This document shows positions 18,476 to 64,000 of a DNA stretch of 64,000 nucleotides, one piece after another. The notes beneath the pieces were generated by a model. It saw only the letters and a list, made by a program, of their open reading frames with translations, was not told the DNA's origin and searched no databases. The translations under genes were made by a program, and so were the position numbers. Within the stretch, counting starts at the first letter, position 1. Every line of letters starts with the position of its first letter. The stretch lies in NCBI GenBank assembly GCA_002270565.1, contig NQMI01000011.1, positions 193,929 through 257,928 of the forward strand, in the 5' to 3' direction. Source of the stretch: Stenocarpella maydis. Lineage: Eukaryota > Ascomycota > Sordariomycetes > Diaporthales > Diaporthaceae.

Positions 18476-20180
18476 CTATTCCTTAGTGAAACCCATGGCC
18501 TGCCAGTTTGCCCTGACTTTCTCCTTGATTTCATCTGGGTAGGAGTGCTCAAAGTCAACCTTCTTGAATGTCGCCTTTCCTTCGTACTCCATGGGCAGGA
18601 GACAGTCCGAAACCATCTTGCCGCCCCGCCGCCTGTCGCCTGAGCCGTGCGACATGTACGGCGTGATTGGCAACCCCGGCACGTCCTCAAAGACGTATTC
18701 GTCCTGTCCCGGCCGGCAGCGGGTTACATATGCCCACATCACGTCCTGGAAGTCGTAGACGTCTATGTCGTCGCCGACCACCAGCAGCCGGTTGACCAGC
18801 ATGGAGGACTTGTCGTTGAAGATGATCCGGCCCAGCTCCTCGCAGAACGCCTTGGACGTCGTTTTCAGCGCGGCTAGCCTCTGCCTGTCGACCTGGAGCG
18901 CACACCATGTGGCCATCGTCTCGAGGGGTGCAAAGGCTTCCTTTATCGGCAGGTCCTTCTGCTTGCAAAAGGTCAAGATCTCTGCAGCTGCTAGAGACGC
19001 CGTGGTGTGCTATAAACAAAAAAAGCCGGACGGGCTCCAGTCAGACACTGTTTTCAGAACGAGATGTGCAAGTCCAGGGTCTGCTTACCGACTCGTCTGT
19101 TATCCTTCCCGGTACGGAGACAGGGAAAATAGCATCATTTCGGTAGGTAATCGCGTCAACTCTGAACAAGGGCATTCTTCTCTTATCCGAGTCGAAGGCG
19201 TAGCCCAGGTAATCCCCAAACGGCCCCTCATCAGCTGTCTCGACAAGGGACATTGCCCCTTCCAGCACGATCTCACTGTTTGCGGGAACGAGCAGGGTGC
19301 TAAGTTCGCATTTCACGAGATCCAGGGGCTTTCCTACAACCCTCCCGACGTATTCGCCCTCGGAGATGCCCTCGGGAATCGGCATAGCGGCTGCTATGGT
19401 CGCGATCGGAGGGACACCAAGAGCAAGCGCCCATGGTATCTCCGTGCTGCCCTGTTTCTGCCACATGTCCTTCATCATGTGGTTGTGCTGTCCGGGGTTG
19501 ACGAGACAGACGATGTGGTTACGGTCATAGACCATGCCCCTGAAGATTGACCAGTTGGTCCAGGACTCGTCTGGTGACTGGAGGATATGGACCCCGTATG
19601 TCTGGATGTACTTGCCGCCATCCTCCATGTGCAACTGCGGGACGGGCAGCTTGTTCAGGTCGATCTCGCCGCCGGATATCTTGTTCTCCTTGCAGGGCCC
19701 GCTCTCGAGCACGTTCGGGGCCAGCGGCTCCGACACCTTGCCCTCCTGGGTCCGCCGGCACAGGTCGCCCCAGGTCGCGTCGACGGGGAGGCCCAGGTTC
19801 CTCGCCAGCCGGCCGAGCCTGGTGCGCCGGCCCTGCCTCAGGCTGGCGGCGTTCCCAAACATGCGCCACAGCCCGCCGCGGGTCGCCCCCTTGACATTTG
19901 AGAACAGGGGGGCCTTGTCGTTGGTCTCGCTCACCAGCCGGCAGATGGCGCCCACCTCGAGGTGCGGGTCGACCTCCCGGGTGATGTCGACCAGGTCGCC
20001 GTCCTGGCGCAGGAGCTCGATGAAGGTGCGGAAGTCGAGCTGCGCCTCCACCTCGTCGACTCGGCCGGGGCCCCCGTTGTTCTCTGCTCGGGCGGACATG
20101 ACTGCTTGTATGGGTGAGAACTCTGGCTTTTCACACGCATGAACTAGGAATTTTTTCGCGAAAGCCTCGCGTCTTGCCAT
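18476..20180 (-). CDS. FDC1: Ferulic/phenylacrylic acid decarboxylase, UbiD family (FDC1-like)
   Basis: Two exons, 19089-20180 and 18476-19009; 541 aa. The protein follows yeast and Aspergillus Fdc1 almost throughout: SETNDKAPLF, GPCKEN, DGGKYIQTYG, WTNWSIFRGMV, EIPWALALGVPP, and C-terminal VGDDIDVYDFQDVMWA and CRPGQDE. The catalytic triad is present: Arg214 in NWSIFRGMV and Glu303/Glu308 in NSEIVLEG, with the same 5-residue spacing as Fdc1. It decarboxylates cinnamic-type or aromatic acids with prenylated FMN supplied by the PAD1 product. PAD1 is encoded divergently 244 bp away. The start at 20180 adds about 27 residues before MSARAENN, which could be a mitochondrial leader or an over-extension; MSARAENN is the alternative start. 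Confidence 0.95.
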
Positions 20181-20424
20181 CCAGAGATGCCAGAAAAGGA
20201 CCTCGGTTTTTTAACAAGCAGATGAGCTGGCTTCAAAGTCTGGGTGCGCTAACACCGGAACCCCCGGTGGGCGGGTCGGAAGTTCCGAACGGAAGCTGCT
20301 CGTAACAGAGGTCTAGTCTACAGCTCGCTGGAAGCCTTTGTGGTCTATAACTTGATTTGCAACATGGTCCGCTCATTTGCAACCATGCGCGTTGAAAAAT
20401 GAGCCTTTTTTTGAGTTGTCCGCA
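20181..20424. promoter_or_regulatory. divergent promoter: FDC1 / PAD1
   Basis: A compact 244-bp bidirectional promoter. It contains CGGAAGTTCCGAACGG (about 20277-20292), an overlapping CGG-N5-CCG and TTCCGAA element, plus another CGGAAC near 20256. Its position between a decarboxylase and the enzyme making its cofactor suggests co-regulation. Confidence 0.6.
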
Positions 20425-21204
20425 ATGTTTCACACATGCCGGAGAGCCAGCAAGACGTCGACGTTGGGTGGCACAGCAGTATTACTCTTGCGTTCGTCGC
20501 CTCAGGGTGCCCGCCGAACAGCACCTCTTCAAAGAGACATATTCTCAAGGCCTCTCCATAACAATGCCACACGCCCAAGGCGTATCGTGGTTGGGATCAC
20601 GGGGGCCACCGGGGCCGTCTACGCCATCCGAGTCCTGAGCATACTGCGAGACCTCGGTGTCGAGACGCACCTCGTCATGAGCAAGTGGGCCTCGGCCACG
20701 CTCAAGTACGAGACAACTACCACGGCATCTGAGATCTGCAGGCTCGCGTCCAAGGTGTACTCCTTCAAGGACATGGCCGCGCCGATCGCCAGCGGGTCGT
20801 TCCTCCACGACGGCATGGTCATCGTGCCGTGCAGCATGAGGACGCTCGCCTCGGTGCGCATCGGCATCTGCGACGACCTCATCTCCCGGGCCGCGGACGT
20901 GTCGCTCAAGGAAGGGCGGAAGCTGATGCTGGTCGTGCGGGAGACGCCCCTGAGCGACATCCACCTGAGCAACATGCTGTTCCTGCGACAGGCTGGCGCC
21001 ATCATCTTCCCGCCTGTGCCGGCATTCTACAACAAGCCGATGAGCCTTGAGGAGATGATTGACCAGAGCGCGGGGAGGATATTGGACTGTATGGGAATCC
21101 ACACGGATGGCTTCCGTAGATGGAACGGGTTTGAGAAGGATGCCGAAGGCGGAGCCGCAACCAGAGACTTTGCTTCATCTCGGACGGGGAGTTCAACCGC
21201 ATAG
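20425..21204 (+). CDS. PAD1: Flavin prenyltransferase, UbiX/PAD1 family
   Basis: Single exon, 259 aa from the ATG at 20425. An upstream in-frame extension begins with TTG and is not used. The first about 45 residues are Arg/Ser-rich and lack acids (MFHTCRRASK..., ...RRTAPLQRD), fitting a mitochondrial presequence, as in yeast Pad1. The UbiX fold follows: RIVVGITGATGAVYAIRVL, then MVIVPCSMRTLASVRIG, DDLISRAADVSLKE, LMLVVRETPLSDIHL and the AFYNKP region. It attaches dimethylallyl to FMN to make prFMN for FDC1. It is convergent with the Zn2Cys6 regulator, with 129 bp between the 3' ends. Confidence 0.95.
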   Translation: MFHTCRRASKTSTLGGTAVLLLRSSPQGARRTAPLQRDIFSRPLHNNATRPRRIVVGITGATGAVYAIRVLSILRDLGVETHLVMSKWASATLKYETTTTASEICRLASKVYSFKDMAAPIASGSFLHDGMVIVPCSMRTLASVRIGICDDLISRAADVSLKEGRKLMLVVRETPLSDIHLSNMLFLRQAGAIIFPPVPAFYNKPMSLEEMIDQSAGRILDCMGIHTDGFRRWNGFEKDAEGGAATRDFASSRTGSSTA

Positions 21205-46015: not shown

Positions 46016-47789
46016 ATGGCCAACATCTCATTAGATCGTGGGACCATCCTCCTGCTTGCAGTGGCTGCCGTAAGTGACTGCATAATTTCCTGTTCAATGT
46101 TGAACATCGTGAAATATGTTTGGTTTACTGACTTGTCTCCCCAGCTGCCCTGCGTTGCGATCATCCGCGGACTCTACTCTGCTTTTCTCCATCCTCTGGC
46201 TAAAGCACCGGGTCCGAAGCTCTATGCTTTCACCGATATCCCGTACCTATACCACCTTATCCGTGGTGACTGGCCGCACGTCCTGAAGCAACTACACGAC
46301 CAGTACGGACCGGTCGTGCGGATTACACCCTTCCATGTCTCATTCACCACCGCCGAAGGCTGGAAGAAGATCTATGGGCACAAGAACAACGCAGCCAAGA
46401 ATTTCCAGAAGGATCCTATAGCAAACGGTCAGAGCTTTTCTGGGAACCCACATATTGTCAATGCCAATGAAGAAGATCACAAGCGTATGCGGCGTCTGCT
46501 GTCGCATGCCTTCTCAGAGGCAGCGCTGCGGAAGCAAGAGGGGGTTATGAAACCTTATATCGATCTTTTCATATCACAGCTGGAGGAAAAGTCCAGGCGC
46601 GGGGAAGTTATCGACGTTGTGAAATGGTTCAACTTCACGACGTTTGACCTGATAGGAGATTTGGCCTTCGGCGAGCCCTTCGGCTGCCTGAAAATGGGCG
46701 GGTACCACCCTTGGGTCTCCATGATATTCGAGAGCGTCCGCGTTAATGTGATGGGAGAGGTCTTCCGACGCCACCCTTCCCTCAACCCGCTGCGGAATTT
46801 TGTCATCCCCCCGAAGCTGCAGCAGAGCCGGCGGGAGCACTGGGAGCTGAGCGAGAAGACAGCGCTGCGGCGCCTGGATACCAGGGACACCGTGCGGGAG
46901 GACTTTATGTCCTACATCCTCCGACAAGAGGGCGACAAGGGCATGAGCAGGGCCGAAGTGGTCGAGAACTGCAACATCCTGATCCTCGCGGGCAGCGAGA
47001 CCACGGCCACTCAGCTAAGCGGGACCACCTTCTACCTCTTGTCGAACCCGGATGTATACAACAAGTTGGCCAGCGAGGTCCGTGCTGCGTTTGCATCCGA
47101 GGACGAGATCACCATGGTTGGTGTCAACAACCTCAAGTACATGCTCGCGGTCTTCGAGGAAAGCTTTCGCATGTGTGAGTAGTCCCTGGAGCCTGGGCAT
47201 TGATGACAGATTGCTGACTGGCAGGAATTAAGATCCTCCTGTACCCATCGGCTTGCCCCGAATTGTTTCTGAGGGAGGTGAGGAGATTAGTGGTTATTAT
47301 ATCCCGCAAGGCGTGAGTCAGCTCGAATTCTGCACTCTAAACATGGCATCCAGGTTCGGCTGACCGGCACATTGCCCAGACTACTGTATCGGTGCCGCAG
47401 TGGTCATCTTACCAATCCGAGCGCAACTGGAATGAACCAGAAAAGTTCATCCCTGAACGATGGCTCGGAGACGAGCGGTTCGTTAATGACAACAGGGAGG
47501 TTCTGCAACCTTTTTCTACGGGACCACGCAACTGCATCGGTAAAAAGTAAGTAAATCATTGGCCCATCATGCTCATTCCTTCAGAAGAAGAAAAAAAAAA
47601 ACGTGAGAGCTGACGTCGTAATAACGTAGTCTTGCGTATGCGGAGATGAAGCTCATTCTCGCGCGCCTGCTGTGGAAGTTCGACCTGGAGTTGATGCCTG
47701 AATCCAAAGATTGGAAAGACCAGAGGATCTGGACTCTTTGGGATAAGAAGCCGCTCAAGGTAAAGCTGAGAGAGGTAGAGAGGCCTTGA
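46016..47789 (+). CDS. Cytochrome P450 monooxygenase (isotrichodermin C-15 hydroxylase-like class)
   Basis: Five exons: 46016-46069, 46145-47174, 47233-47312, 47380-47546, 47630-47789; 496 aa. An N-terminal membrane anchor (LLLAVAALPCVAIIRGL) is followed by the HPLAKAPGPKL hinge. I-helix AGSETTATQ, ExxR in EESFR, FIPERW and the heme loop PFSTGPRNCIG with Cys440 are all present, so it should be active in the endoplasmic reticulum with a CPR partner. The overall sequence resembles the large fungal group around trichothecene hydroxylases, which decorate many polyketides and terpenes. It lies 6 kb from the PKS pair and is the obvious tailoring candidate. Confidence 0.93.
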
Positions 47790-49541
47790 AGTGTCACCAG
47801 AGGGATCAGAGAAAGGGCCTTGATACTCACCCTTAACATCCCAGGTGCACTGGGGCGCGACTGCTAGCCACACGCTGTAGCCCGTCCGGCCAAAAGACCT
47901 TAATGCCCAATCCGGGTATTGGTTATTCCTAACAGTATATAAGAGCCGTACCGTCACACCCGGCCCGGATTCCGCCACCCCTATTGGAATATGGTTCTGT
48001 TGGATCGCACATAGTCCCATTAGCTAGGCTGGCTAACTAAGCCAGGGGCTTAGCCGAGGGCACAGCTGAGGAAGGGTATTATCTTCCTCAGCATAGCAAA
48101 CGTCTCCGCTTCTTCCAGATATAGAATATAGATAGAATTAAAATAGACTGTGGGCCGCTGGTTCAATTGTTAGCCGTAGACTTTATATACTTATTAATTA
48201 TCAACCCCCAGCAGCCAAGGGATCAGTGGAGCGGGCCATAGACCGAAGCTTACGAGGAATCAGCGGTAAAGAGGGCGACAACGAAGAGGGAGACGAGGAG
48301 GTAGACGAAGAGGGCAGCAACAAAGATGACCAATCCGGCTTTGAGAATTCTGAACTGACCAATCCTGCTTAAGATAACTTTCGGGTGAATTAACTGGGTT
48401 AATAACGCTACGCGGGCCATATCCCTCGCAAGCTCGGTCTATGACCCGCTCCGCTGAACAAACTAATAACCAGACCCCCACGTACGTACGTACTACCGCC
48501 ATGTGGCAAAGGCCACCCAACAACTCCCCTGATTCCGCCAGCCGAGTTGGGCCAGTCAGAACTGCACACGGTCGAGGATAGCATTCACGAGATCCGTAAT
48601 TATGGTGGCAGATGTTGCAATTTACCAGAAGTAGTAGTCCTCCACCGCCCTTCGATATTCCTCTTCAAAATGATACGCATTCTTTCTCCGCGTTGAACGA
48701 TGTGACGCGAGGTTGGAAGCGCCACTCGTGTCTACTTAGGTAAGGTACCTAGGCAGACTCAACGAAGATGACGGAAATCAGGTCCATTGTGTCTCGGGTG
48801 GGAAGGGCAAGAGACCTGGACTCACGAGACCTGAACTCACATGATACACAATGGATTCAGTAATAGTGGCGCATTTTACTGTTGGTTCGTGTTAAAACAT
48901 TTGTCGGGGTCACACCAGCCAGCCTCACGGCCTTATGTGGCTGTTTTTTTGGGCCTGCTTGGCCTGAGTGGCCTATAAGGCGGCCTGGGCAAGCATCACT
49001 GCAACCAACTTATTGCCCCAGCCCTATAGGGCAAGGCGGCCTGGTTCGGTGTCACAGGCCTGCGTGATTGCTGGCCACGAGTGACCCAAACTTGACCTTG
49101 GCATATGAAACAGCAGCCCTCGACCGGATTCTGTCGCAGGACGTTTCCACCCCGAACGAAGAGGTATAAAGTGATTTTGTGTACCTAGGTAATGGATGGT
49201 TGTCAATCTTGCCATGGACAATACGCAGCAGCACCGAAACATCCTCGTAATCTCTCATACTCAGCAACAATTTACCACACGCAATTTCGTCAAAAAAAAA
49301 AAAAACTTATCACGCCGTGTGTGAAGCTGACGCATCCGATCATCTCCGTTTGCTGCCGCTGTCAACCAGGCGCCTCAAGTCACCGATCCACACATATTTG
49401 GAGTTAGCGATCTGACTTAGAGACACCTACGGGGTACCCTAGCTCCTGGGCTGTTTGGGCATACTCCGCCTTCTGCAAACATTTCCGTCAAAAAAGAACG
49501 CCAAAAATAAGAATTTATCTTTAAATTGGAAAACTGCGAAG
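47790..49541. other. intergenic with an inverted-repeat element
   Basis: 1.75 kb without a supported gene. Contains a miniature inverted-repeat structure (48221-48459, separate entry), repeated GGCCT-rich palindromic bits at 48940-49070, and a TACCTAGGTA palindrome at 49182-49191. Confidence 0.5.
48221..48459. repeat. short inverted-repeat element, MITE-like
   Basis: Arms 48221-48258 and 48422-48459 are imperfect reverse complements (about 38 bp, core GGAGCGGGCCATAGACCGA against GGAGCGGGTCATAGACCGA, then AGCTTACGAGG against GCTTGCGAGG). They enclose about 160 bp with no ORF. The outer sequence CAG(T/C)GGAGCGGG resembles hAT-type ends, but matching 8-bp target duplications are not visible. 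Confidence 0.5.
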
Positions 49542-52064
49542 ATGCCTGCAAGGAATGCGGCTCCCACTGTGGCTACGAACCAGCAACAAGCTACTCCGAG
49601 GATGCGTACAAGCAATACGTCCCCCACTGTCGCTACGAACCGGCAACAAGCAACTACGAATACGACTACAGACAATGCAGCTCTCAATGTGAATAAAAAC
49701 CAGCAACAAGTGACACCGACACCCGGGCCTACTGCAGTGCCCAAGAAAAGCGTCCTTGCCCTCTTCAATAACGACCTCCCCGACTGGGACAACGTTGCTG
49801 TATTCCTCCTCTTTGCGACGGTGGTCCAGCACCTAGAGAAAGAATTCGGCAAAGACGCCGTTAAGAAATGCTTCCTCCTCGAGCTGCACAAAGTCAACCT
49901 CGGGATCAAGCGTATCCAGGGCAGCAGGATCGGGGATGTTCTTATTCCCATGTTCAGCATTCTCTTCGGAGGACCGGGGAAACCGGGCCTCGTCGACACG
50001 AAAACGTTTAGTGGCGACGTCAGAAAACACGTCGATCTAGTCCTTGCGAGGCGCGCTGTGTCAGCGGGTTGTGCCTCTACATTCATGCGAGCAGACCTCA
50101 CCGTGGAGTTGGTGGATGCAATTGTCGGCCACAAACAGACCATGACGAGGCTCATAAGTGACCTCGAGAGCAATAAAAACTTTAAGCCCGGCCAAGAGTT
50201 TCCTGGGAAATGCTCATGTGGGAAGGCGAACCGTTGTGGCGCTTGCGAATACATCAGAGAGCAACTGATGACCTGCGTGCGATCCAAAGATCCCAAGGAC
50301 CTGGAGGGTTCTCTACTCGCAGGGAGGTTTTATGCTCAGGACTACCTCAGGGTACTGGAGGAGCACAAGTTCCTTAACAAGGGTGACAAAATCTACCTGG
50401 ATTATGGCGGCCTATCTGGCCTTACGGCACCCCTAGAGGCCCGCGTGGAGCACCCTGGGCACTTCGTCAATCACCCAGAGTTGGTAAAGTACTACAAAGA
50501 ACAGATGGAGTCGGAACCAAGCGAAGAGCAAAGACGCAAGAATATGAGAAACCATATGCGGCAGATGTTGGATTCCGAATATTCAGAGTACCAAAAGAGG
50601 ATAGACTACTCTACAATTTCTGGTCCAGGAAGGTACAAGACGATAATCGACGCGGGGAAAGAAGCCAAGAAGATATTCTTCTTTGGTGGCTCATCCATGA
50701 CCCTACTGAACGCACTCATCTCTGCTGGTCTCAAGGACAAGATTGAATTTGTCGGCCAGGGTGTAAGTATCCCTCGTCCAGTACCTTCGCCTGCCTGCTA
50801 GTTACTAACAACTCGTAAACAGGGTGTCATAGACCAGACCATGACCCTCACGGGCAACAGCTTCAACTGGGATCTGAATCCCACCGCGGCCTACGGCGTC
50901 CTGCATGCGCAGGCGGACGCAGCCACCAACATCCCCGAGTTCATGCTTGGGAGCACAGAGCTGGGCAAGAAAAGGGTATTTCAGGGCGAGAATCTGGCCG
51001 GGGTTTTCGCCGGCGGCCGTCGCAATGATCGCCTCGGCCGCCGTATTGTCGGTTTCGGAATCTCTGCGGCCAAGAGCAACATTGAGAAGTTCATTCTGGA
51101 CTGTCAAAAGGTCGACAAGTCCAATGCGACCAAAAAGAATGACAAAACCAACCCAGGGCAGGCTAAACTGCGTGCGGAGGCCAAAGGGGCTCAAGACCTA
51201 TATGTGGAGTATCTGACAGACGCTCGGTACCAGGTCATGGGCGCCGACCTCGCCGCGTTCCTCGCGGCCTACTCAAAAAGCTTCCGCAAAGATCACTGCA
51301 GAGAAACAAAACCAAAATACTATTTCATCAAGAAACATGGCGGGAATGCGGTGGAGCGTGCGAGGTTCAGCGACGAAGCGAAGGCGAAGGAAGGGGAACA
51401 GTGCTTGACGCTTCACAGCAGCGTGACGCTGTTCATGCCTCAAACAGAAGACAGGGTGACCGTGACGCTGACGAAAGAGATGATCAAAGAGGTCAAAGAT
51501 GCCATGACGGAAAAGGTCCGCGCCGCCCTCCAACCAGTTGAGAGTGGGAACAAAGTTGACCCCACGGCGAACAAGCGGCCGGCCAACAACCCCAAGCCCA
51601 GCTCGAATCCTGCCCAACGCAATGCCAATGGGGCACATGCCGTGAATGGGCCCGTGGCTGTGCGGGGTGGAGCGAACAACAATTCAAATCCTGCCGTACG
51701 TCGCAACCCAGACTCCGATTCCGGGTCCAGGGACGACAGACGAGCCCCGCCGGGCTCAGCTGGCGCGCCACAGGCCAGGCATACTAGTACCGGCTCTCCT
51801 TCAGCAGCTGGGCCAACACCACCCGTCCAGGCACGCGACAGTAACAAACGCCTAGGCAAAACCACACCCCAGGGACATACTAGTACTGCTTCTCCTTCAG
51901 CGGCTGGGCTAACAACTAGACCTGCTGGCGGCACGCCCGTCCGGGCCACCGAAAGTAAGACACGCCTAGGCGAAAACCCAGTTAACGGACAGGTGGGCTC
52001 CAGTGCTGCGAGCAGGAGGCAGACCCCGGGGGGCACCCAGGACTCCCGTGCCCGATCCAGTTGA
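49542..52064 (+). CDS. Large protein with divergent nucleoside-hydrolase-like core and low-complexity tails
   Basis: Two exons, 49542-50762 and 50823-52064; 820 aa, starting at the ATG of MPARNAAP (an upstream in-frame TTG is not used). Two stretches resemble inosine/uridine nucleoside hydrolases: NNDLPDWDNVAVFLLF (residues 77-92) at the place of the metal-binding D-x-D-x3-DD motif, and GNSFNWDLNPTAAYGVL (418-434) at the place of the GN-x-EFN-x3-DP-x-AA motif, just after KKIFFFGGSS and VGQGGVID. Key acids are only partly kept, so activity is uncertain. Residues 224-235 form C-x-C-x5-C-x2-C, a possible zinc knuckle. Residues 7-59 are three 20-residue repeats (PTVATNQQQAT type). The last about 180 residues are Pro/Ser/Asn/Arg-rich, with two SPSAAG repeats. 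No signal peptide. Function unknown. Confidence 0.65.
49560..49718 (+). repeat. three 60-bp tandem coding repeats
   Basis: Period of 20 codons: APTVATNQQQATP, SPTVATNRQQATT, ALNVNKNQQQVTP at residues 7, 27 and 47 of the preceding entry's protein. Confidence 0.75.
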
Positions 52065-53795: not shown

Positions 53796-56700
53796 TTATG
53801 CCTTGGAGTTGTACTTGACGACCATCATTTGCTGTACTGCAACAGCAAGGCTGTGCAGGTTTCCCGCGCCCGTAATCTTCATTGTAGGCAAATCAACACC
53901 CAGCCACTGCCTGATCCAGGCTCTTATTTCTATGCCTATCAGCGAGTCCATACCAAGATCTGTGAGTCGAGCTTGGAGGTCGAGACCGGCATCTGGTTTC
54001 AGTTGAAACTTGCATAGCGCTTTCCCAATCTGTGTCGCTATGAATACCGTCGCCTCGTCAGACTGGAGCGTGACAATGTTGGAGCGCAGCTCCCTAACTG
54101 CGCGGCTGAGCTCCTCGTTGGACGTCAGATCGGAGCCCGAGGAGGTAGCAGAGTCACCCGGCTCAAAGTTCCGCATAGCCAGCATTCGACGATCATTCTT
54201 CCATGGGATACGGCACGTCTCTGATGTCAGCGGTATGGTAGATCGCATCCCCATGGCCAGGAGAGACGGCTGTACGCGACCGGTGGGGGCGGTTCGAGCA
54301 CCGCCCGGCGGCTCCATCAACATGCTTTCAATACAGTCCAGGAGCTCGGCTTCCGTGTTGAACCATTGGCCCGTCGCCTTGGCTGAGTCGGCCGCCTCAG
54401 GCCGGTCAGCGACGTAGCCTACATCGCTAATGAAACCAACGTTGAGCACACTAGCAGCCAGGCCCAAGCTGCGCCTGTACGCGGCAAAAGCTTCCATGTA
54501 CGCGTTTCCGGCGTGGTAGTTGGCCTGTCCCCACCAGCCTCCTGTGGCAGCAGTAGAGCTGAAGAGGAAGAAGAAATCAAGCGGGGCCTGGGGCTGTAGC
54601 TTCAAAAGGGCGTCGTGGATGTTCCGGGTCCCGTCGATCTTGGGCCGCGATGCCGTGAGCCAGCCGGCCCACTTCATGCTGAGAAAGCTGCTGTCCTGGA
54701 GAGCCATGGCAGCGTGCAGCACGCCCCCAACCGGCGCCCGGGCGGTCCTGATGGCCCGGGCAACATCGTCGTACTTGGCGACGTCGCCGGGCACGAACAC
54801 GGCCTTGCACCCCATAGCCGCGAGCTCCGTTGCGAACTGGGTGTGTTCTGGCAGAGAGCCCGCGGAGCGCGACAGGATGAGGATCTCCTTGGCCCCCCTT
54901 TCCACAAGCCACCTGCTTATTCCCGTACCTAGGGAGCCCAGGCCTCCGGTAAAGAGATATGACCGATCTTGCCGCAGCTTGAGCGTCTTATAGATGGGAT
55001 CGGTGGGAAGCGCACAGGCAGCAGCACCCTCTGGCATCGTGACGACGAGCTTGCCTATGTGCTGGCTCTTTTGCATTTGTCGGAATGGCTGGGAAATCTC
55101 CATGGCCGAGAAGGTAGAATCGATCCAAGGCTTCACGGATCCCTGGGCCCATAGTTCCATCACCCGCTTCAGAATGCCTCCTACGGCCTGCGGCTTCCGG
55201 ACCCAGAGGTGCGTCAGGTCGAGGCCGACAAAGGTACGGTTCAGTTCGAACTGCTCCATGGCCAGCCTCGCGTGGCCGAGAAAGTCCCTGCGGCCGAGCT
55301 CGACGAAGGTGCCGAACTCGGCCACGCACTGCCAGGACGCGTGGAGCTGCTCTCCCGAGAGTTGGTTGAGAACTATGTCAACGCCACGACCCTCTGTTTT
55401 TGCCATGATCTCTGGCACAAACTTCGAGTCACGAGAGTCAAAGATGTGGTCCGGGGGAATCTGGAATTCCTTAGCCAGGAATTCTCTCTTCTTTTGATTG
55501 CCGGCAGTACAGTAGATCTGTTCCAATCAACGTCAGCTGTGGTCCTTCGTGTCTCGTTGTCAGGGCAGACAAGGGTACGGGGACAAGCGTTCAACTTACA
55601 TCGGCTTCTAGCATCTGGGCGAGCTGGAGTGCTGCCATGCCTACGCCTCCAGCGGCCGATTGGATCAAAATACTCTATATTAAAGACCCATAGCATTAGT
55701 TATTGACCAGAAGAAGCGTCTTTGGGTATCAGACACAGGTGATCGGGGCTGTCATTGCATACCATTCCTCTGCTGGCCTTGGCCAGGTTGAATAGCGCAT
55801 GGAAAGCGGTGCAGTACGCGATGGGGATGCTGGCAGCCTCCTCGAAACCCATCTTGTCTGGAATCTTGCAACATAAATGCTGTGTCACAGTCTTGGTGTT
55901 CGTGAAAGAACCGCTCGATATGACGGCGACGCGATCACCCACCTTCACCTTGTCCACGTCCGGCCCAACGCCTCTGATAATGCCAGCACACTCTAGACCG
56001 AACCCAGCATCAATGGCAGCCGTGTCGGTGATGATACCTTGCGCAATGAGGACATCCTTGTAGTTCAGGCCGACGGCTTTCACATCGACCATGACCTCGC
56101 CGCTGTTGAGTGCTGGAGCCATGAGAGGCTTCCAATAGAGCGTATCGGTGAGACCCGACTTGCGCTGCTCCAACTTGCGCACAGCCATCTCCGCCGGCAT
56201 CTGCTGGGATTCCCGGGCGAGGTCGACACGGCGATAGCGGCTGGCAAGAAACTTTCCGTCCATGTAGGCCCACTCGTACTCAGGGCTGGCGTCTGGCTCA
56301 TCCGAGATACGCTTCTCGAACTCGGAGTACACCCTCAGGATGGCCTGAGCCGCTGCTGTCGTGGAGAACCTGTCGAGTTCGAGGGTCGCGAAATCGAGGC
56401 CCAGCTCTGTGCGCAGCACGCGAGCCACGCCAAACAGCGGCGCGTACTCGGGTTCCACTGTCTGGCCGACTTGACATGGGCCGGTGAGCCAGAGAATACC
56501 ACACCGGCCGTCGTGGGCTTCCTTGATAAATCTCTGGAAATGAGCAAAATCCTGTTCAGGGAGTCCAGAGAAGAAGGGGGAGGATATGTCGACGACGGAG
56601 ATGATGTCCTGGCCCGGAGGAAGCCTTGCCGTGCTGTCCTCCAGGATATGTTCATCGACCTGGTAGCCGGCCTCCTGCAGAGCAGCGCAGATGTCCTTGG

Positions 56701-59700
56701 CTTGCTGGCCTGCGCGTTTCAACAGCGTGACCTGGCTTGATCTGGTCGGGGACGTCGCTGCTAGCGGCCGACAGAGGATGTTATTATTTGTATAGCCGTC
56801 GAAACTGTTCGTGATATTACCAAACCCAGACGCCGAAAGCTCCTCCTCCCAACGCTCGAAGCCGACATGGGGCCTGGAGACTCGGCCGTCAGCCTCGCCA
56901 AGCCACCAGCCTGGTATGACACCGAAACAGTGATTAATCCACGTCGTTACGGGGGAGATTTCTTGCAGCAGAAACCAGCCCTGAGGGTGCACTAGTTTTC
57001 TAACGTTGGTCAGTGACTGGTGCAGGTTGGGCGTGGCATGTATGACGTTCCACGCAATGACGAGGTCGTATGATTCGGCCTTGAAGCCTTGCTCCAGGGG
57101 ATCTCTGCTGACATCGAGCACGGCAAACTCGAGTCCCGAATACCCCTCGAACCTCTTTCTCGCTTCAGCAAAAAAGCCGCTCGATATATCAGTATATGTG
57201 TAGGATTGATACATCCTCTCCCCATTAACCGATGTCAGGCTTCGCAGCGTACTGGCCGTGGCGCCCCCCGTTCCAGCACCAATCTCCAGTACCCGGAGGT
57301 TTGGCTTTTTGTGCCCAATCAATGACAATAGTGCCGAGGAATCCGTGTCTAGGAGCAGGCAGTCGTAGACGCGTTGCAGGACACCGTCCTCCATGAGGAG
57401 CTCAAGCTCGGTGGTACTACCATTGATGATATCCTTGCAGCTGGTGCTGACACGCTGGATAGCAGTTGCCGGGGCGTGAACCTCGCTTCCTTGGAGCTGC
57501 TTGAAGAGAGACGAAAGCATTTCGTCCCGCCGCTCGGCCGTCATGGTGACGAGCTCGGCAGCGTCAGGGACGCCTGCACAACTGAGCGAGCCAGAGGCAA
57601 ATTCGGAGAACGTGTCCTGGAGCCACTTTATATATCTGGCCAGGTGGTCGCGGCTTGGCTGAGGAGCACGGCGCACGTTGTCGAGGGTGCGGGCCAGTGA
57701 GAGCAGGTTGAATCGATCCAGAAGCCGATACAGCTCAGCCTTCTCAGCGGATATGGCTGGAGAGATGAGAGAGGACGGGTCGATAAACTGAACGTCCTCT
57801 CGCCACTCCAGCTGGGCAGCTCCGTGCTGGTTTGTCTTGGCCCCGCTCTGTTCGCTGATCCTCGATAGCTGCCAGCCCTTGGAACTCACAACAACGTTTT
57901 GACCATCAACGGATGCGAAAACACTGCCGAAGAACGCCCCAGATCTCTGCTCCGTAACCTCTGCCAGGAACTTCAACTGCTCGGCTCCGCGCGGGGGAGG
58001 AGTAAAGGTGAACTCATCAACATAAGCAATGAGGGCCAGTGAGTTTCGATTTCTCGTCAGGCCGTATGCGTCAGCCACGTATAAACTCTGAACGAGACGA
58101 TCCAGAACCCCAGGGTGTATAGAGTAGTACTTTTCCTCTCCTGGAAAGAGGTCAAGCCGCAAGGCTGCCGCGACCTTGGGTGTCAAAGGGTCGGCGGTGA
58201 TGTCCATCATGCCACTGAAGCGGGGGCCATACTCGAGGCCAAGGGATCTGAACTTGCGATACCAGGAAACGGAAGAGCACACCCTTGAGAAGACACTATG
58301 GGTGACTTCAGCACTGGGCCCTTCCAGGCTATTATTGTCTGGCTCTCTGTCGTCGCCACGGACCTTGCCAGATGCATGCTTGATCCAGCTCCCGTCCCCG
58401 TAGCTTGAAATGGTGAAGTCGTACCAATCTGAGCTGAGTGAGTCGGTGAGTCCAATCTGGGTTAGTTCCGTGATGATTTCCGTTTGGTTTTCGTAGGTCA
58501 TGGGCAGAGGAGCCCTGAAGTGCACCTGCTTGCAGGTAAAGCTGGCCTTTCCCCTAAGCTGTCGGATAGCCTCCCCAGCCATACACAGGTAAGAGACTCC
58601 CGGCAGGATGACAGTCCCCTCAACCTCATGCTCTACGATCCAAGGCACATCCTCGAGACGTAACAAATTTCGCCAGGCCGGATTTGCGCTCGTGCTCTGT
58701 GAGATCCGACTGCCGAGGAGTTCATGATGAAGGAATTTACGAAGACGGTACTCCTCGGCGAGCCTAGACTCATGCCAAAGCGGTTCTTCATAATACCAGG
58801 GGTACGACGGCAGGTCCGTGAGAATGCTTCCCTTCTCTATCACGCGGTCCAGAGCCACTGGCTGGTTATGCAGCCACAGTTCGCCCACAGCACGAAGTAG
58901 CTCCTCATGTGAGTCCCTTCCGCGGGTGAGGACGTTGATGTACTCGGCGTTGGCCTTCTCAGCCACCAAGGTCTGGCGGATGGGACCTGCAAGCGCCGAG
59001 TGCGGGCCGATCTCAAGGAAGATCTTTTCCGGCCCCAGGTCGTGTATTGCCTTGGACACGGCCCCACTGAATAGGACTGGCGACACCAAGTTCTGAACCC
59101 AGTAAGCTGGACCGAGATCAGCCCCCTTGGTGATGGCACTGTTCACGACGCTTGAGATGAACGGCGTTCTCGGGTCACGAGGCCTCACGTGGGGCTCGAG
59201 AAGGTTGAGATATTGTGAGGAAACGGCCTGCATATGATGGGAGTGATAGGCCATGTCTACTTGTAGAGCCCTGGCAAGCACGTCCGGGTGTGTTTCCTTT
59301 ATTTCCTTGACAACCAGGTCGAGTACTTCCTTGTCTCCGGTCAGCGTGACGCTATTGGGGCTGTTTTCGCACCCCACGAGCACGCCAGGCCTGAGATGTG
59401 GCGCGACCTGAGCCTCTCCCAGCCCGATAGCGGCCATGCCGCCGGCTGAGCCTTGTACAGCCCCCAAAACCTTTCCACGATAGTAGGCGATAATGATAGC
59501 CTCGCGCTGAGTGATTGCTCCGCAAGCGTATGCCGCCGCGATCTCTCCTGACGAGTGACCCAGCACTGCCCGCGGCTTGATGTTATATGTTTCCAAGAGA
59601 TCAACGAGGGCTATTTGGAGCGCCGCGCAGCAAACCTGTGAGAATTTCCCGCCGTTGATCTTGGATACCTTTTTGGGTGCCAGAATCTGATCTATTTCAT

Positions 59701-61676
59701 CAAAAATTTTAGCCGTGGTCAACTAGTAAGCCGGGCTGGCCGGCGATATAGCTCTCCAACGTACCTGTCAGCTTCCATTCGGGAGCATCTGGTAGCTTTT
59801 GCAGCATGCTTTCCATCATTACTAGTGATGCTTTGAACGAGGGAACGTTCTGTATAAGAGATTTCCCCATTTGCGCCCACTGCGCGCCTTGTCCGGTGAA
59901 GGCAAACACCAGCTGTGCAGGTTCGTAAAGACCGTGACGAGTCGACTTGAGGACTGCCAAGTCATCAATACCGTTGGCCACGCAGCAAGCACGGTGGCTT
60001 AGTGTCTCCCGTTTCATGGCCAGAGTATAGGCCATATGGCTTAGTCGGTCTGGGTGGGTGAAGAGATAGGCCTGATGGCGGTTCACCATCTTCTCAAGGG
60101 CCTGTGGATGCTTGGCGGAGAACAGAACAAGCTTAGGAGACTTCAAAGCGGTCAGTACTTCCGCAGGGAGACTGGCATCGCTCCATTTGTCCGTGCCTTT
60201 GCCTTGAATTCCCACGTGGCTGGCGGAGGCAAGCAGGGCGTAGGCGTTGGAACCGCCCACTCCGTAGGAGCCAACACCAACCACCCTATCTCTTCCTTTT
60301 GGCCAAGGAATCGCCTCTGTGGGGACTTTGAGATTGTAGCGATCGAATGGTATCTTTGGGTTTGGGGTTTTGAAGTTAGTGTTGGGTGGAATAATATCGT
60401 TCTCCAGCGCAAGCGTCATCTTCAGAACACTGGCGAGGCCGGCGGCCCCTTCGACGTGGCCAATGTTGGTCTTGACCGAGCCAATGTAGACGCCTCCGTG
60501 ATTTCCAAAGACGCGTCCCACTGCTTCACACTCAAGAGGGTCACCAACAGGCGTCCCTGTCCCGTGACACTCCATCATTGCCGTCCTTGAATAGTCCTTG
60601 ATGCCTGCGAGCTCATGAGCCCTGCGGATCAAGTCCTCCTGTGCTACTGGATTGGGGGCCGTCATGGTCGAAGACTTTCCACTAGAATTGCTGGCTGTGG
60701 ATAGGACGACCGAACGGATGGGATCGCCGTCTCGGACTGCATCGCAGAGTCTCTTGACGTAGACAGCTACCACGGCCTCTCCACGCACGAAGCCGTCTGC
60801 CTCAGCATCGAATGCCTTGCACGTCCCTGACGGAGATAGGACGTTGTGATCGTTCATCGTAGCCGTGAGCGTGGGGGAGTATATAATGCTCGTACCCGCC
60901 ACCACTGCTGCTTCACAGTCCCCATGGATTAGGGCGTGGCAAGCTTGGTGTAGACCCAACAGTGAGGAGCTACACGCTGTCCGGACCGTCACGCTCGGGC
61001 CCATGAAGCCAAACTCGTAATGAATCCGGTCTGCGGGCATGAAATCCATGCTGTTGAGGAGGTTGTACGGGTGAACAGCCTGCGGGTCCGATGCATCCAG
61101 CTCAGCCCGGTCGCCACCAAAGCTGCCAACCCAGACGCCTATCTTTCTCCCTCGCATCTCCGAAGGCTTTTGTCCCGCTCTCTGGAGAGCTTCGTAGACG
61201 ACCTCCAGGGCCAACCGCTGCTGTGGGTCCAGAGTCTCCAACTCTTTCTTGGTCATGGACCAGAAGGAAGCGTCGACGTTCTTAAGGTCGATGCTGCTGT
61301 CCAGGAAATACCCATACTCACTGGGCACATGTCTCTTCTTCTTCGGCGCATACCACGCCTCGACGTTGTAGCGGTCCTTGGGGACTGGGCAGCGACCGTC
61401 GCGTTTATTCACAAGCATCTCCCAGAAGGCTTCGGGATCAGTGATACCGCCGGGTAGCCGCATAGCCATCCCGCAAATAGCCACCGGCTCGATGAGAGCC
61501 GTGTTCGCATCGCTAGGAACATCAAAATAGCTACTCGAACCATTCAAATTGTCGGTGATGCTACTTCCATCAATGCTGTTCCCATTGATGCCGTTGACAT
61601 GTATGCCGCTGCCGTTGCTGCCATTGGCACTTGGAAGCGGTTTTTCGTCGTAGTACGTCGGTATGTCTGATAACAT
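53796..61676 (-). CDS. Highly reducing type I polyketide synthase (KS-AT-DH-MT-ER-KR-ACP)
   Basis: Four exons: 59765-61676, 55763-59691, 55600-55674, 53796-55517; 2545 aa. After an Asn/Gly/Ser-rich leader (residues 15-50): KS with Cys235 (RTACSSSL), His371 ([11 protein letters not shown]) and His407 (NIGHVEG); AT with [13 protein letters not shown] and [14 protein letters not shown] with [11 protein letters not shown] (the H-x3-G-x4-P motif); C-MeT with [14 protein letters not shown] with [12 protein letters not shown] and [17 protein letters not shown] with [18 protein letters not shown] with [12 protein letters not shown], whose Ser carries phosphopantetheine. No thioesterase or reductase follows the ACP, so an external partner must release the chain. 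All reductive and methylation motifs look intact, so the product should be a largely reduced, methyl-branched chain. The type III PKS lies head-to-head 1.3 kb away. Confidence 0.96.
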
Positions 61677-62991
61677 CTCTTGGTGATTTCGCTGGCTTTC
61701 CTGACTCTACTGACTCTGACGGGCTTCAACGAAGTGAGAATGTCTTGGACTCAGAAATAAAATACTTGACTTGAGCTGGCTACAAGATTCCTAGAGTTAT
61801 TGAGTCACCACATATGCAGCTAGTTTTAAGGTTGGAAGTAATACATGGATAATTTCCCACAGGATCCCCAAGTTGGCATGATGGCAATCGGGGCTCGCTC
61901 CGGCCTCCTCACCACTCGTGCGAAACTAATATTCGGGCAGGCCCACTAGGGCTAGTAGTACTTCCTCAGCCAACACAGCCAAATGACTATATACAAAACG
62001 CGCGGATCCGCTAAACTCTCAGGGGTGCCCTTTTTTTTGTACGATATCATAGTACTTCTACCTTGCAATGTGCTACCTGGCGGGTCCAAAACACTCCATA
62101 AAAAAAGTATATTCGTAGAATGCCTGCGTGTATTGCGAGTATGTTCACTTAGTGTATGCTATAGGTGGTTAAACAACCACTTACTAGGAAGTTTCTGTTT
62201 AGTAAAGGTCAAAACCTTCTCTCATTACCCTGTAAACTAGTCATCAAATGGAACCTATGGCGAGTCTCCTGATTTTTAATGTTCAGACGCTTTTAGGGTG
62301 TGCCGACGGGATCGCCGGTCGTATGTTGAAGTGCCGGTGTGCTTGTGATCGCTGGCTAAGATTTCCCCTAGGTGAACCTTAAACCGCTACATGTATGAGG
62401 CACGAACCACTTCAACTCGGACCCTCTCAAGATGGCAATAGCCCGTAAGCTTATATGATTTCGCTCTGTGTCAGGGGCTCGAACCCCAGTCACTGTCTGA
62501 AAGATCTGTCCCACCCGAGGGCACTACCTATCACATACAGCTTACCCTATGCCGGTTGAAAGAAGCACACGAAATACAAGGTCCGGTAGACTGAGTAATA
62601 TAGTTGAGCCGACAGGCTACTCTTTTTTTCGTCCTCGGGGCGCGGTATCGTGGATTTGGTCGTCGGGTCGTTCAACCCCGTACCACAAAGTACCTAGGTA
62701 CCAAGACTTCGGTTGCCGTTTAGAGAGCCCTGAGTGATCGGCGACGCATAGGGGTGGAGATACGCTATCCCGAGATCCTTTGAGTTTCCGAGCATCTATT
62801 GTCCCATGTATTTGTTTGGATCAATACCAAAGGGTTTAGTTTTGGTGTCAAGCGCTGGGCCATTCCAAATGAGTGCTCCATGCAATCAAGTGTCCTCTTC
62901 TTACTATTGTTTGAGTTATTGCGGCACCCTCCTGTCCATTTAAACTTCATTCCCTGTATTGCTTGTGCGTCATCCATAGCTCAACACATCT
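61677..62991. promoter_or_regulatory. divergent promoter region: HR-PKS / type III PKS
   Basis: 1.3 kb shared by the two PKS genes. Contains the 12-bp palindrome GTACCTAGGTAC (62690-62701), AT-rich stretches at 61990-62230, and a tRNA-like fragment near 62461-62530 that I do not call a gene. No other coding signal. Confidence 0.5.
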
Positions 62992-64000
62992 ATGATCATG
63001 AAAGACAACACTCTGAACGACCACATGCAAAATGGCCACACGCAAAATGGCCACACGCAGAACGGTCATGCGCGGAACGGTCATTCTGGCACAGAGTCCT
63101 GTCACTCACCAGTTCCTGATCTTTGGATCACCGGCATCGGCTCGCAGTATCCTCCATATTTGATCCCACCTGAGAAATTTGTCAGCTGGGCTAAGAGATA
63201 CCATGATATCGAGAAACCGGTGTAAACGACGATTCTTCCACTTTTGATTTTGACAAGGCCAAAGCTGACATATAGCCTGCAAAACCAGACTCTCCAGGCT
63301 GCTCAAGCTCACAATGAACAGTGGGATCCAGACGCGTGCCTCATCGATGGATTTTGAGACCGGCTTCGGTTGCCAGCCGGAGGTCCCAACCATTGAGCAA
63401 CTTGATTCGCGGTTCCGCCAGGTCGGTGTTGACCTGACCGTCCAGGCGTGCCGAAAGGCTATACGTGACTGGGGCGGTGAAGCAGAAGAGATTACGCATG
63501 TCATTGGAGTCACCGTCGGTTGCCTGAGCCTTCCCGGCTACGACTATCTGGTGGCCCGCAAGCTCGGATTGGGCTACCATGTCGAGAACATGTTTTTGAA
63601 CGGCATCGGCTGCGCAGGCAGCGTCGCCCTGATGCGAGTAGCCGCCAGTGCCGCCATGGCGGCGACGGCTCGAAAGAGGCCCGCTCGAATTCTTTGCTTT
63701 GCATCTGAGGTCTGCACCATGTATCTGAGGCACCAGTACGCTGAAGCTGAGGTCGCTACTGATATTGAGAACATGGACATCGCGGGCGCCATCTTCGGCG
63801 ATGCGGCATCAGCGTTCATCTTGTGTAATGAACTCGGATTAGATGACCCGGACCAGGCCAAGTTCCAGCTGCTCGAGTGGGAGCGCATGACCGTTCCCGC
63901 CACGATACAGCACATGGGCGCCTTGGTGAAACCGACTGGCTTCACGAGCATCATCTCGAAACAGATTCCGGATATCACCAATCAGGCGGTCCGGCCTCTA
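62992..64000 (+). CDS. Type III polyketide synthase (chalcone/stilbene synthase family), 5' part; runs off the window
   Basis: Exon 1 is 62992-63221, exon 2 starts at 63289 and is open to the last base, giving at least 314 residues. The N-terminus has [18 protein letters not shown] repeats (residues 14-31) before the thiolase fold begins at [14 protein letters not shown]. Catalytic Cys185 is in [13 protein letters not shown], matching the chalcone synthase Cys164 region; [14 protein letters not shown] precedes it and [11 protein letters not shown] is the GDGAAA-type motif. The His and Asn of the triad fall beyond the window. Type III enzymes extend an acyl starter with malonyl-CoA and cyclise to resorcinols, resorcylic acids or pyrones. 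Divergence from an HR-PKS suggests that the starter is the HR-PKS chain. Confidence 0.93.

What the first reader, a model, noticed from the sequence alone, without database searches (positions are those of the whole stretch)
53796..64000. Head-to-head highly reducing type I PKS and type III PKS: a likely two-synthase assembly line
Seen: a complete 2545-aa HR-PKS without any release domain lies divergent from a type III PKS, sharing a 1.3-kb intergenic region. Known: fungal HR-PKSs usually need a partner to release the chain, and type III PKSs accept long acyl starters; an HR-PKS/type III PKS pair making alkylresorcinols (soppilines) has been reported in Penicillium, as I recall. Inference: here a reduced, C-methylated chain is passed to the type III enzyme and cyclised to a branched alkylresorcinol, resorcylic acid or pyrone, then possibly oxidised by the P450 at 46016-47789. 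The ER and C-MeT motifs look intact, so the chain should be more saturated and branched than in simple alkylresorcinols.
Basis: partly seen in the sequence, partly recalled or inferred. Interest (0 to 1): 0.88.

Follow-up and report, generated by a model that had tools for sequence, protein, structure and literature searches.

The report
Paired fungal polyketide synthases, reshaped pocket
A Colletotrichum fungus carries two different polyketide-making enzymes side by side that have evolved as a team, a known type of partnership, but here the second enzyme has an unusually rebuilt reaction pocket and stands near a gene for attaching terpene units, so the product is probably not one already known.

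Summary
Observation confirmed. The window holds a complete HR-PKS (2545 aa, four exons, KS-AT-DH-MT-ER-KR-ACP, no release domain), divergent from a type III PKS across 1321 bp. The organism is a Colletotrichum. The pairing is real: of 19 species found in both capped hit lists, 11 carry both proteins on contigs of identical length (three with consecutive locus tags), and the two gene trees mirror each other (r = 0.975 over 12 pairs; with seven representatives only the true pairing among 5040 permutations fits as well). Such pairs, often divergent, are published (soppiline, scirpilin; clades 7/8), so the architecture is not new. New here: this Colletotrichum/Leotiomycete type III clade differs from its relatives at all six cavity positions compared (position 338 is Gly in 13 of 13, Ser in 57 of 58 others) while the triad is kept. 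To the right lie a TauD oxygenase, a CloQ-like prenyltransferase, an O-methyltransferase, a P450 and a second PKS. Best reading: a methyl-branched reduced chain is handed to a pocket-remodelled type III PKS, ring-closed, then perhaps prenylated. Product untested.

The parts
53796..61676 (-). HR-PKS gene, 4 exons (61676-59765, 59691-55763, 55674-55600, 55517-53796), 2545 aa, KS-AT-DH-MT-ER-KR-ACP, no release domain
   Evidence: gene model; Pfam; motifs and junctions against orthologues
61677..62997 (.). 1321-bp intergenic region shared by the two divergent synthase genes
   Evidence: sequence read
62998..64000 (+). type III PKS gene, exons 62998-63221 and 63289-64321 (ends 321 bases outside the window, L003:2321), 418 aa; catalytic Cys183, His339, Asn372
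49443..52064 (+). gene without a Pfam hit, one short intron near 50763-50822, between the P450 and the HR-PKS; not thought to belong to the pathway

Best explanation
The two genes encode a two-synthase line. Step 1 (inferred from intact motifs): the HR-PKS builds a reduced, probably C-methylated acyl chain on its ACP and cannot release it itself. Step 2 (inferred from precedent and co-evolution): the type III PKS takes the chain as starter, either directly from the ACP onto Cys183 or through CoA, adds malonyl units and closes a ring, giving an alkylresorcinol, resorcylic acid or pyrone. Step 3 (weaker inference): genes right of the window tailor the ring, among them a CloQ-like aromatic prenyltransferase, an O-methyltransferase, a P450 and a TauD-family oxygenase. 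Shown here: gene structures, domains, the catalytic triad, the shared history of the pair, and that this clade of type III PKS has a rebuilt pocket (MsCHS positions, commonest residue of relatives to residue here: 132 C to V, 133 T to G, 197 N to Y, 256 F to A, 265 T to S, 338 S to G). The likely reason for the rebuilding is a bulkier, branched starter than the linear unsaturated chain of soppiline.
For: Complete synthases with intact active-site motifs. Divergent neighbours with no release domain; no hit of the hydrolase families PF00975, PF12697 or PF03959 falls in C12:193929-295628. Pairing elsewhere: of 19 species named in both lists (120 listed hits each), 11 have both proteins on a contig of identical length, three with consecutive locus tags. 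Co-phylogeny: r = 0.975 for 12 pairs, 0 of 20000 random permutations as high; r = 0.926 for 7 representatives, 1 of 5040 permutations, the true one. It does not just follow species: this pair is farther from the C. jinshuiense pair of the same genus (1.14 and 1.32) than C. jinshuiense is from Aspergillus bombycis (0.87 and 0.93). Both trees show a long stem to this clade (rank 4 of 69 and 7 of 59 internal branches). FscB and PspB are reported to give product only when co-expressed with their type I partners (PMC12559476 section 11; original papers not read).
Against: No expression or product data. Eight of the 19 species do not show the same-contig match (three HR hits look like other PKSs; five may be other strains or fragments). 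The pocket argument rests on alignment and on motif-based numbering, not on a cavity model. No transfer route was tested: the AMP-binding search scored only 14 of 99 candidates, so a CoA ligase nearby is not excluded, and only three hydrolase families were searched. The right-hand tailoring genes may belong to the second, reductase-ended PKS; no synteny in another species could be read.
Confidence: 0.83

Rival explanations
1. The type III PKS works alone on fatty acyl-CoA (as ORAS does) and the HR-PKS makes its own unrelated product; the two are neighbours by chance or share only a promoter region.
For: ORAS accepts C4-C20 acyl-CoAs by itself in vitro (PMC6985275, passages). The genome is rich in type I PKSs (47 PS-DH hits), so adjacency by chance is about 0.9%.
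Confidence: 0.1
2. A form of the best explanation: the HR-PKS chain is released as a free acid or by another hydrolase and the type III PKS uses a CoA ester made by a separate ligase; the partnership is metabolic, not physical.
For: Type III PKSs normally take CoA esters; the ligase search was incomplete (14 of 99 candidates scored).
Against: No hit of three hydrolase families in the surroundings (other families not searched); no AMP-binding domain among the neighbouring ORFs scanned with Pfam (only part of all ORFs).
Confidence: 0.3
3. The two synthases belong to a larger joint pathway with the second PKS (KS-AT-DH-MT-KR-ACP-R) to the right, whose product is combined with the ring made by the type III PKS.
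For: The second PKS lies in one run of SM-type genes with the pair. Second rPKSs at such loci are described for Podospora curvicolla and Cercophora caudata (PMC6985275 section 14).
Against: That paper reads those cases as the merging of another rPKS cluster. No synteny evidence here.
Confidence: 0.15

Closest known systems
PspA/PspB (soppiline, Penicillium soppii)
   Same: HR-PKS plus type III PKS at one locus; the type III PKS accepts the HR-PKS chain; a P450 at the locus (PMC6985275, passages and section 14; original not read)
   Different: PspB (P0038) is 49% identical and sits in another sub-clade with Aspergillus; it has C132, T133, N197, F256, T265, S338, all six different here
FscA/FscB (scirpilin, Fusarium scirpi) and XylPKS (Xylariaceae sp. 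FL1272)
   Same: Type III PKS dependent on its type I partner (PMC12559476 section 11; original not read)
   Different: P0046, the Xylariaceae sp. FL1272 protein that I take to be XylPKS, is 48% identical, has T133, N197, W256 and S338 and branches apart
Clades 7 and 8 of fungal type III PKSs (PMC6985275)
   Same: Adjacent, often divergent reducing PKS; co-evolving trees
   Different: Colletotrichum is not named in the main text; assignment to clade 7 or 8 could not be tested; the cyclopropane-synthetase domain found at nearly all clade 7 loci was not among the hits of the ORFs scanned
AiizPKS locus (PMC12559476 section 11)
   Same: A published type III PKS locus with both a type I PKS and a prenyltransferase gene, so the combination as such has a precedent
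   Different: There the prenyltransferase is of the DMATS class; here it is PTase_Orf2 (CloQ-like)
ORAS and the type III PKS 9hrb of Aspergillus thesauricus
   Same: Family and triad; 9hrb is the best PDB match (E 1.1e-97) and that species' enzyme AthePKS comes from a hybrid cluster with a type I PKS
   Different: ORAS acts alone; its Cys120, Thr121 and Phe252 (numbering counted on the alignment) are Val, Gly and Ala here

Membership tests
Fungal type III PKS | Chal_sti_synt N and C domains | tested here: met
   PF00195 E 1.6e-19, PF02797 E 8.8e-17
Fungal type III PKS | Cys-His-Asn catalytic triad | tested here: met
   Cys183, His339, Asn372 aligned with C164/H303/N336
HR-PKS | KS-AT-DH-MT-ER-KR-ACP with intact motifs | tested here: met
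HR-PKS | no integrated release domain | tested here: met
   no Pfam hit after the ACP; 50 residues from the ACP DSL motif to the end
Co-evolving rPKS/type III PKS pairs (clades 7/8) | adjacent, divergent reducing PKS | tested here: met
Co-evolving rPKS/type III PKS pairs (clades 7/8) | type III and rPKS trees congruent | tested here: met
   (12 pairs)
Co-evolving rPKS/type III PKS pairs (clades 7/8) | falls in clade 7 or clade 8 of the published tree | tested here: inconclusive
   groups with PspB, a clade 8 member, against the ORAS-type outgroup, but the published tree's sequences were not at hand
Soppiline pathway | type III PKS in one sub-clade with PspB | tested here: not met
   separate sub-clades; 49% identity
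Soppiline pathway | product is an alkylresorcinol | not testable with these tools
   needs expression
ABBA-type aromatic prenyltransferase (neighbouring gene) | PTase_Orf2 domain | tested here: met
   PF11468 E 2.5e-76; CloQ E 1.4e-55
ABBA-type aromatic prenyltransferase (neighbouring gene) | acts on the product of this pair | not testable with these tools
   proximity only

The most novel reading that the evidence does not exclude
A Colletotrichum/Leotiomycete lineage has evolved a pocket-remodelled type III PKS that takes a bulky methyl-branched HR-PKS chain. With a soluble CloQ/NphB-type prenyltransferase close by, the cluster makes a prenylated branched alkylresorcinol: a fungal parallel to cannabigerol biosynthesis in which an HR-PKS replaces the fatty-acid starter. 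A small, unnamed four-helix protein that stands near both type III PKS genes of this genome would be a general helper of fungal type III PKSs.
Probability: 0.2. Interest if true: 0.75.

Novelty: new variant of a known kind. Interest (0 to 1): 0.5.

Why it matters
HR-PKS/type III PKS pairs are known from two characterised pathways that I saw cited and from kingdom surveys. How the second enzyme adapts to its partner's chain is open: PMC6985275 says it remains to be determined whether these rPKSs all provide the same starter and how different precursors could have affected type III specificity (passage). This clade offers a natural experiment: same kind of pair, same triad, six cavity positions changed, with long stem branches in both trees. 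Swapping those positions with PspB would test directly how starter choice is encoded. If the neighbouring prenyltransferase takes part, the locus would give a route to prenylated resorcinols with branched side chains.

Tried and rejected
Adjacency as proof of pairing: rejected alone, because the genome has at least 47 PS-DH (type I PKS) hits.

Conserved C-terminal tail of the HR-PKS as a docking peptide for the type III PKS: the pattern [YF]x[AS][RK] in the last nine residues occurs in 24 of 34 rows of the linked clade and 4 of 27 outside. Three of the four are Letharia, Gallowayella and an unnamed relative of Letharia. The pattern was chosen after seeing the sequences, and two of the ten inside misses are incomplete proteins. 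It may be plain ancestry; kept only as a lead.

Rfam scan of the window: nothing at gathering score. Prenyltransferase paralogue on C246: Pfam on seven ORFs of the 17.9 kb read found a permease, an aminotransferase, a DHODH, an MFS piece and the prenyltransferase itself, no PKS domain; the two prenyltransferases are 27% identical.

Literature: no paper describing a PTase_Orf2-type prenyltransferase beside an HR-PKS/type III PKS pair showed up in the listings (titles and abstract starts only). The term 'prenyl' occurs once in each of the two surveys: in one for DMATS genes beside type III PKSs, in the other for a terpene-cyclase locus. The original soppiline and scirpilin papers were not found in the library and were not read. 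PMC12443245 (stemphol producer, passages) concerns a single type III PKS and was not used.

Rows dropped: 69 of 120 listed type III hits (of 148) and 60 of 120 listed HR-PKS hits (of 7924 scored) went into the FastTree trees; I chose named or informative rows, type III length at least 325 aa. The ML tree used 47 of the 71 type III rows. Of the 19 species in both lists, 8 were not counted as pairs: C. tofieldiae, C. gloeosporioides, B. bassiana, P. nodorum and D. ampelina (HR hit in or next to the linked clade, but other contig length; C. gloeosporioides judged by identity), and A. arundinis (by tree), P. nucicola and A. hancockii (by identity), whose HR hit looks like another PKS.

After checking against the calls I lowered interest from 0.52 to 0.50 and the novel case's interest from 0.78 to 0.75, because the AiizPKS locus is a published precedent for type I PKS, type III PKS and a prenyltransferase together.

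Full report
WHAT IS THERE. The window is C12:193929-257928 of a 53.5-Mb genome in 312 contigs. The five best type III PKS hits are all Colletotrichum (81-87% identity; C. sojae, C. tofieldiae, C. gloeosporioides, C. truncatum, C. spaethianum), so the organism is a Colletotrichum. The minus-strand gene 61676-53796 has four exons and encodes 2545 aa, KS-AT-DH-MT-ER-KR-ACP, no Pfam hit after the ACP. Motifs are intact: KS TACSSS, AT GHSSG, DH HEVEG and [18 protein letters not shown] with the downstream VIHAT and LLQE, ER GGVG, KR GGLGSLG and NYHAGN, ACP GMDS (that the MT His/Glu pair marks an active C-methyltransferase is recalled). The plus-strand gene starts at 62998, 1321 bp away, and ends 321 bases beyond the window (418 aa).

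IS THE PAIR REAL. The genome holds at least 47 hits of the PS-DH domain of type I PKSs, so neighbourhood alone is weak evidence (about 0.9% by chance). I therefore compared relatives. Nineteen species are named in both the type III and the HR-PKS lists (120 listed hits each). In 11 of them the two proteins sit on contigs of identical length, taken as the same contig (C. truncatum, C. spaethianum, C. sojae, C. jinshuiense, Lophiotrema nucula, Oculimacula yallundae, Xylariaceae sp. FL0804, Aspergillus bombycis, A. pseudodeflectus, A. insuetus, A. carlsbadensis). In C. sojae that contig is only 22.6 kb. In three, locus tags are consecutive (EsH8_VII_000054/55, ABOM_000925/924, VTL71DRAFT_5654/5655). 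Distances in the two trees agree (12 pairs including this one, r = 0.975, 0 of 20000 permutations as high; 7 representatives, r = 0.926, 1 of 5040, the true pairing). The pattern is not the species tree: C. jinshuiense, of the same genus, carries a different pair lineage that is nearer to that of Aspergillus bombycis than to this one. The pair is inherited as a unit.

WHAT IS UNUSUAL. Six Colletotrichum rows and seven sister rows (four named Leotiomycetes, three unnamed) form one type III clade: support 1.0 in the FastTree tree of 71 rows, SH-aLRT 100 and a stem of 0.55 in the ML tree of 47 of these rows. The matching HR-PKS clade (12 rows, support 1.0) also has a long stem; the stems rank 4th of 69 and 7th of 59 internal branches. 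In the 71-row alignment this clade differs from the other 58 rows at all six cavity positions compared. 132: V in 6 of 6 Colletotrichum (F, S, I, G in sisters) against C in 50 of 58. 133: G in 6 of 6 (S, G, C in sisters) against T in 57 of 58 (one gap). 197: Y or F in 13 of 13 against N in 46 of 58. 256: A in 11 of 13 (V and G in the others) against an aromatic residue in 46 of 58. 265: S in 12 of 13 (one gap) against T, A or V in 50 of 58; this position varies generally, and 2 others also have S. 338: G in 13 of 13 against S in 57 of 58 (one A). A seventh position just after the catalytic CAG is S in 11 of 13 against G in 58 of 58. Cys and Asn of the triad are present in 13 of 13, His in 12 of 13 (one gap in a shorter protein). 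Mapping to MsCHS numbers was by motif; ORAS numbers were checked by counting on the alignment. PMC12559476 states that 256 is a bulky aromatic in most fungal enzymes, that 197 influences specificity and that 265 is variable (passages). That a glycine at 338 opens the cavity in plant enzymes is recalled. Reading: the pocket was rebuilt for another starter, most simply a bulkier branched chain, while chemistry at the triad was kept.

SURROUNDINGS. Right of the window, in window numbering: TauD-family oxygenase ORF 64935-65675 (-), small protein 66600-67007 (+), PTase_Orf2 aromatic prenyltransferase 67312-68288 (+), O-methyltransferase ORF 69651-70427 (+), P450 (L003:9263 to L004:1080, +), then a second PKS on the minus strand, KS-AT-DH-MT-KR-ACP-R without an ER hit, then an MFS transporter, an SDR and a berberine-bridge-type oxidase. 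The prenyltransferase is CloQ-like, one of two found in the genome; no PKS domain was found around the other. NphB, recalled as a member of the same superfamily, geranylates cannabinoid precursors (PMC7190591, abstract start in listing). A type III locus with a type I PKS and a DMATS-class prenyltransferase (AiizPKS) is published, so the combination is not without precedent. Left: P450, FAD oxidase, TPP enzyme, SDR and FAD_binding_3 ORFs at 37-48 kb, separated from the HR-PKS by a gene without a domain.

A SIDE FINDING. A 135-aa protein without a Pfam or NCBIfam match occurs twice in the genome as far as the search shows, once near each of the only two type III PKS genes found: 2.3 kb downstream here, with the TauD gene between, and about 2.3 kb upstream and divergent at the ORAS-type gene on C259. 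The copies are 50% identical and share several invariant His, Glu, Tyr and Arg residues with the homologues. A given neighbour's only paralogue would fall within 5 kb of the second type III PKS by chance with p about 2e-4, before allowing for the handful of neighbours looked at. Eight homologues were found, one named (C. cereale). The model of one homologue is a four-helix bundle; membrane association is plausible, function unknown. I suggest a helper of type III PKSs handling lipid-like substrates or products.

VERDICT. The two-synthase reading is well supported and belongs to a published kind (PMC6985275, section 14 read whole, otherwise passages; PMC12559476, section 11 read whole, otherwise passages). 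The variant, a remodelled pocket with a CloQ-like prenyltransferase in the neighbourhood, is what deserves follow-up. Product class, starter, hand-over route and cluster border are not shown.

Noticed in passing
66600-67007 in window numbering (L003:4600-5007) and L007:1715-2137 (C259): A 135-aa protein, four-helix by a model of its homologue, without family match; found twice in the genome, each copy near one of the two type III PKS genes; possible type III PKS helper.
   Followed up: partly
67312-68288 in window numbering (L003:5312-6288): CloQ-like aromatic prenyltransferase (PF11468) close to the pair; a second, 27% identical copy on C246 has no PKS domain around it.
   Followed up: partly
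L004:2394 to L005:about 1757, minus strand: Second PKS (no ER hit) ending in a thioester reductase domain, in the same run of genes as the pair.
   Followed up: partly
C-terminus of the HR-PKS, window 53799-53816: HR-PKSs of the linked clade share a short tail after the ACP (KYNSK, KYEAR, KYQAR): [YF]x[AS][RK] in 24 of 34 linked-clade rows and 4 of 27 others; possible docking element or mere ancestry.
   Followed up: partly
19044-21201: UbiD-family decarboxylase ORF (-) beside a Flavoprotein-domain (UbiX-type) ORF (+), possibly a prenylated-FMN decarboxylase pair.
   Followed up: no
G000:C12:181148-181630 and C12:100354-100725: Two further PS-DH hits of type I PKSs on the same contig, left of the window.
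   Followed up: no
49443-52064: Gene without a Pfam hit, with a low-complexity C-terminal half, between the P450 and the HR-PKS.
   Followed up: no
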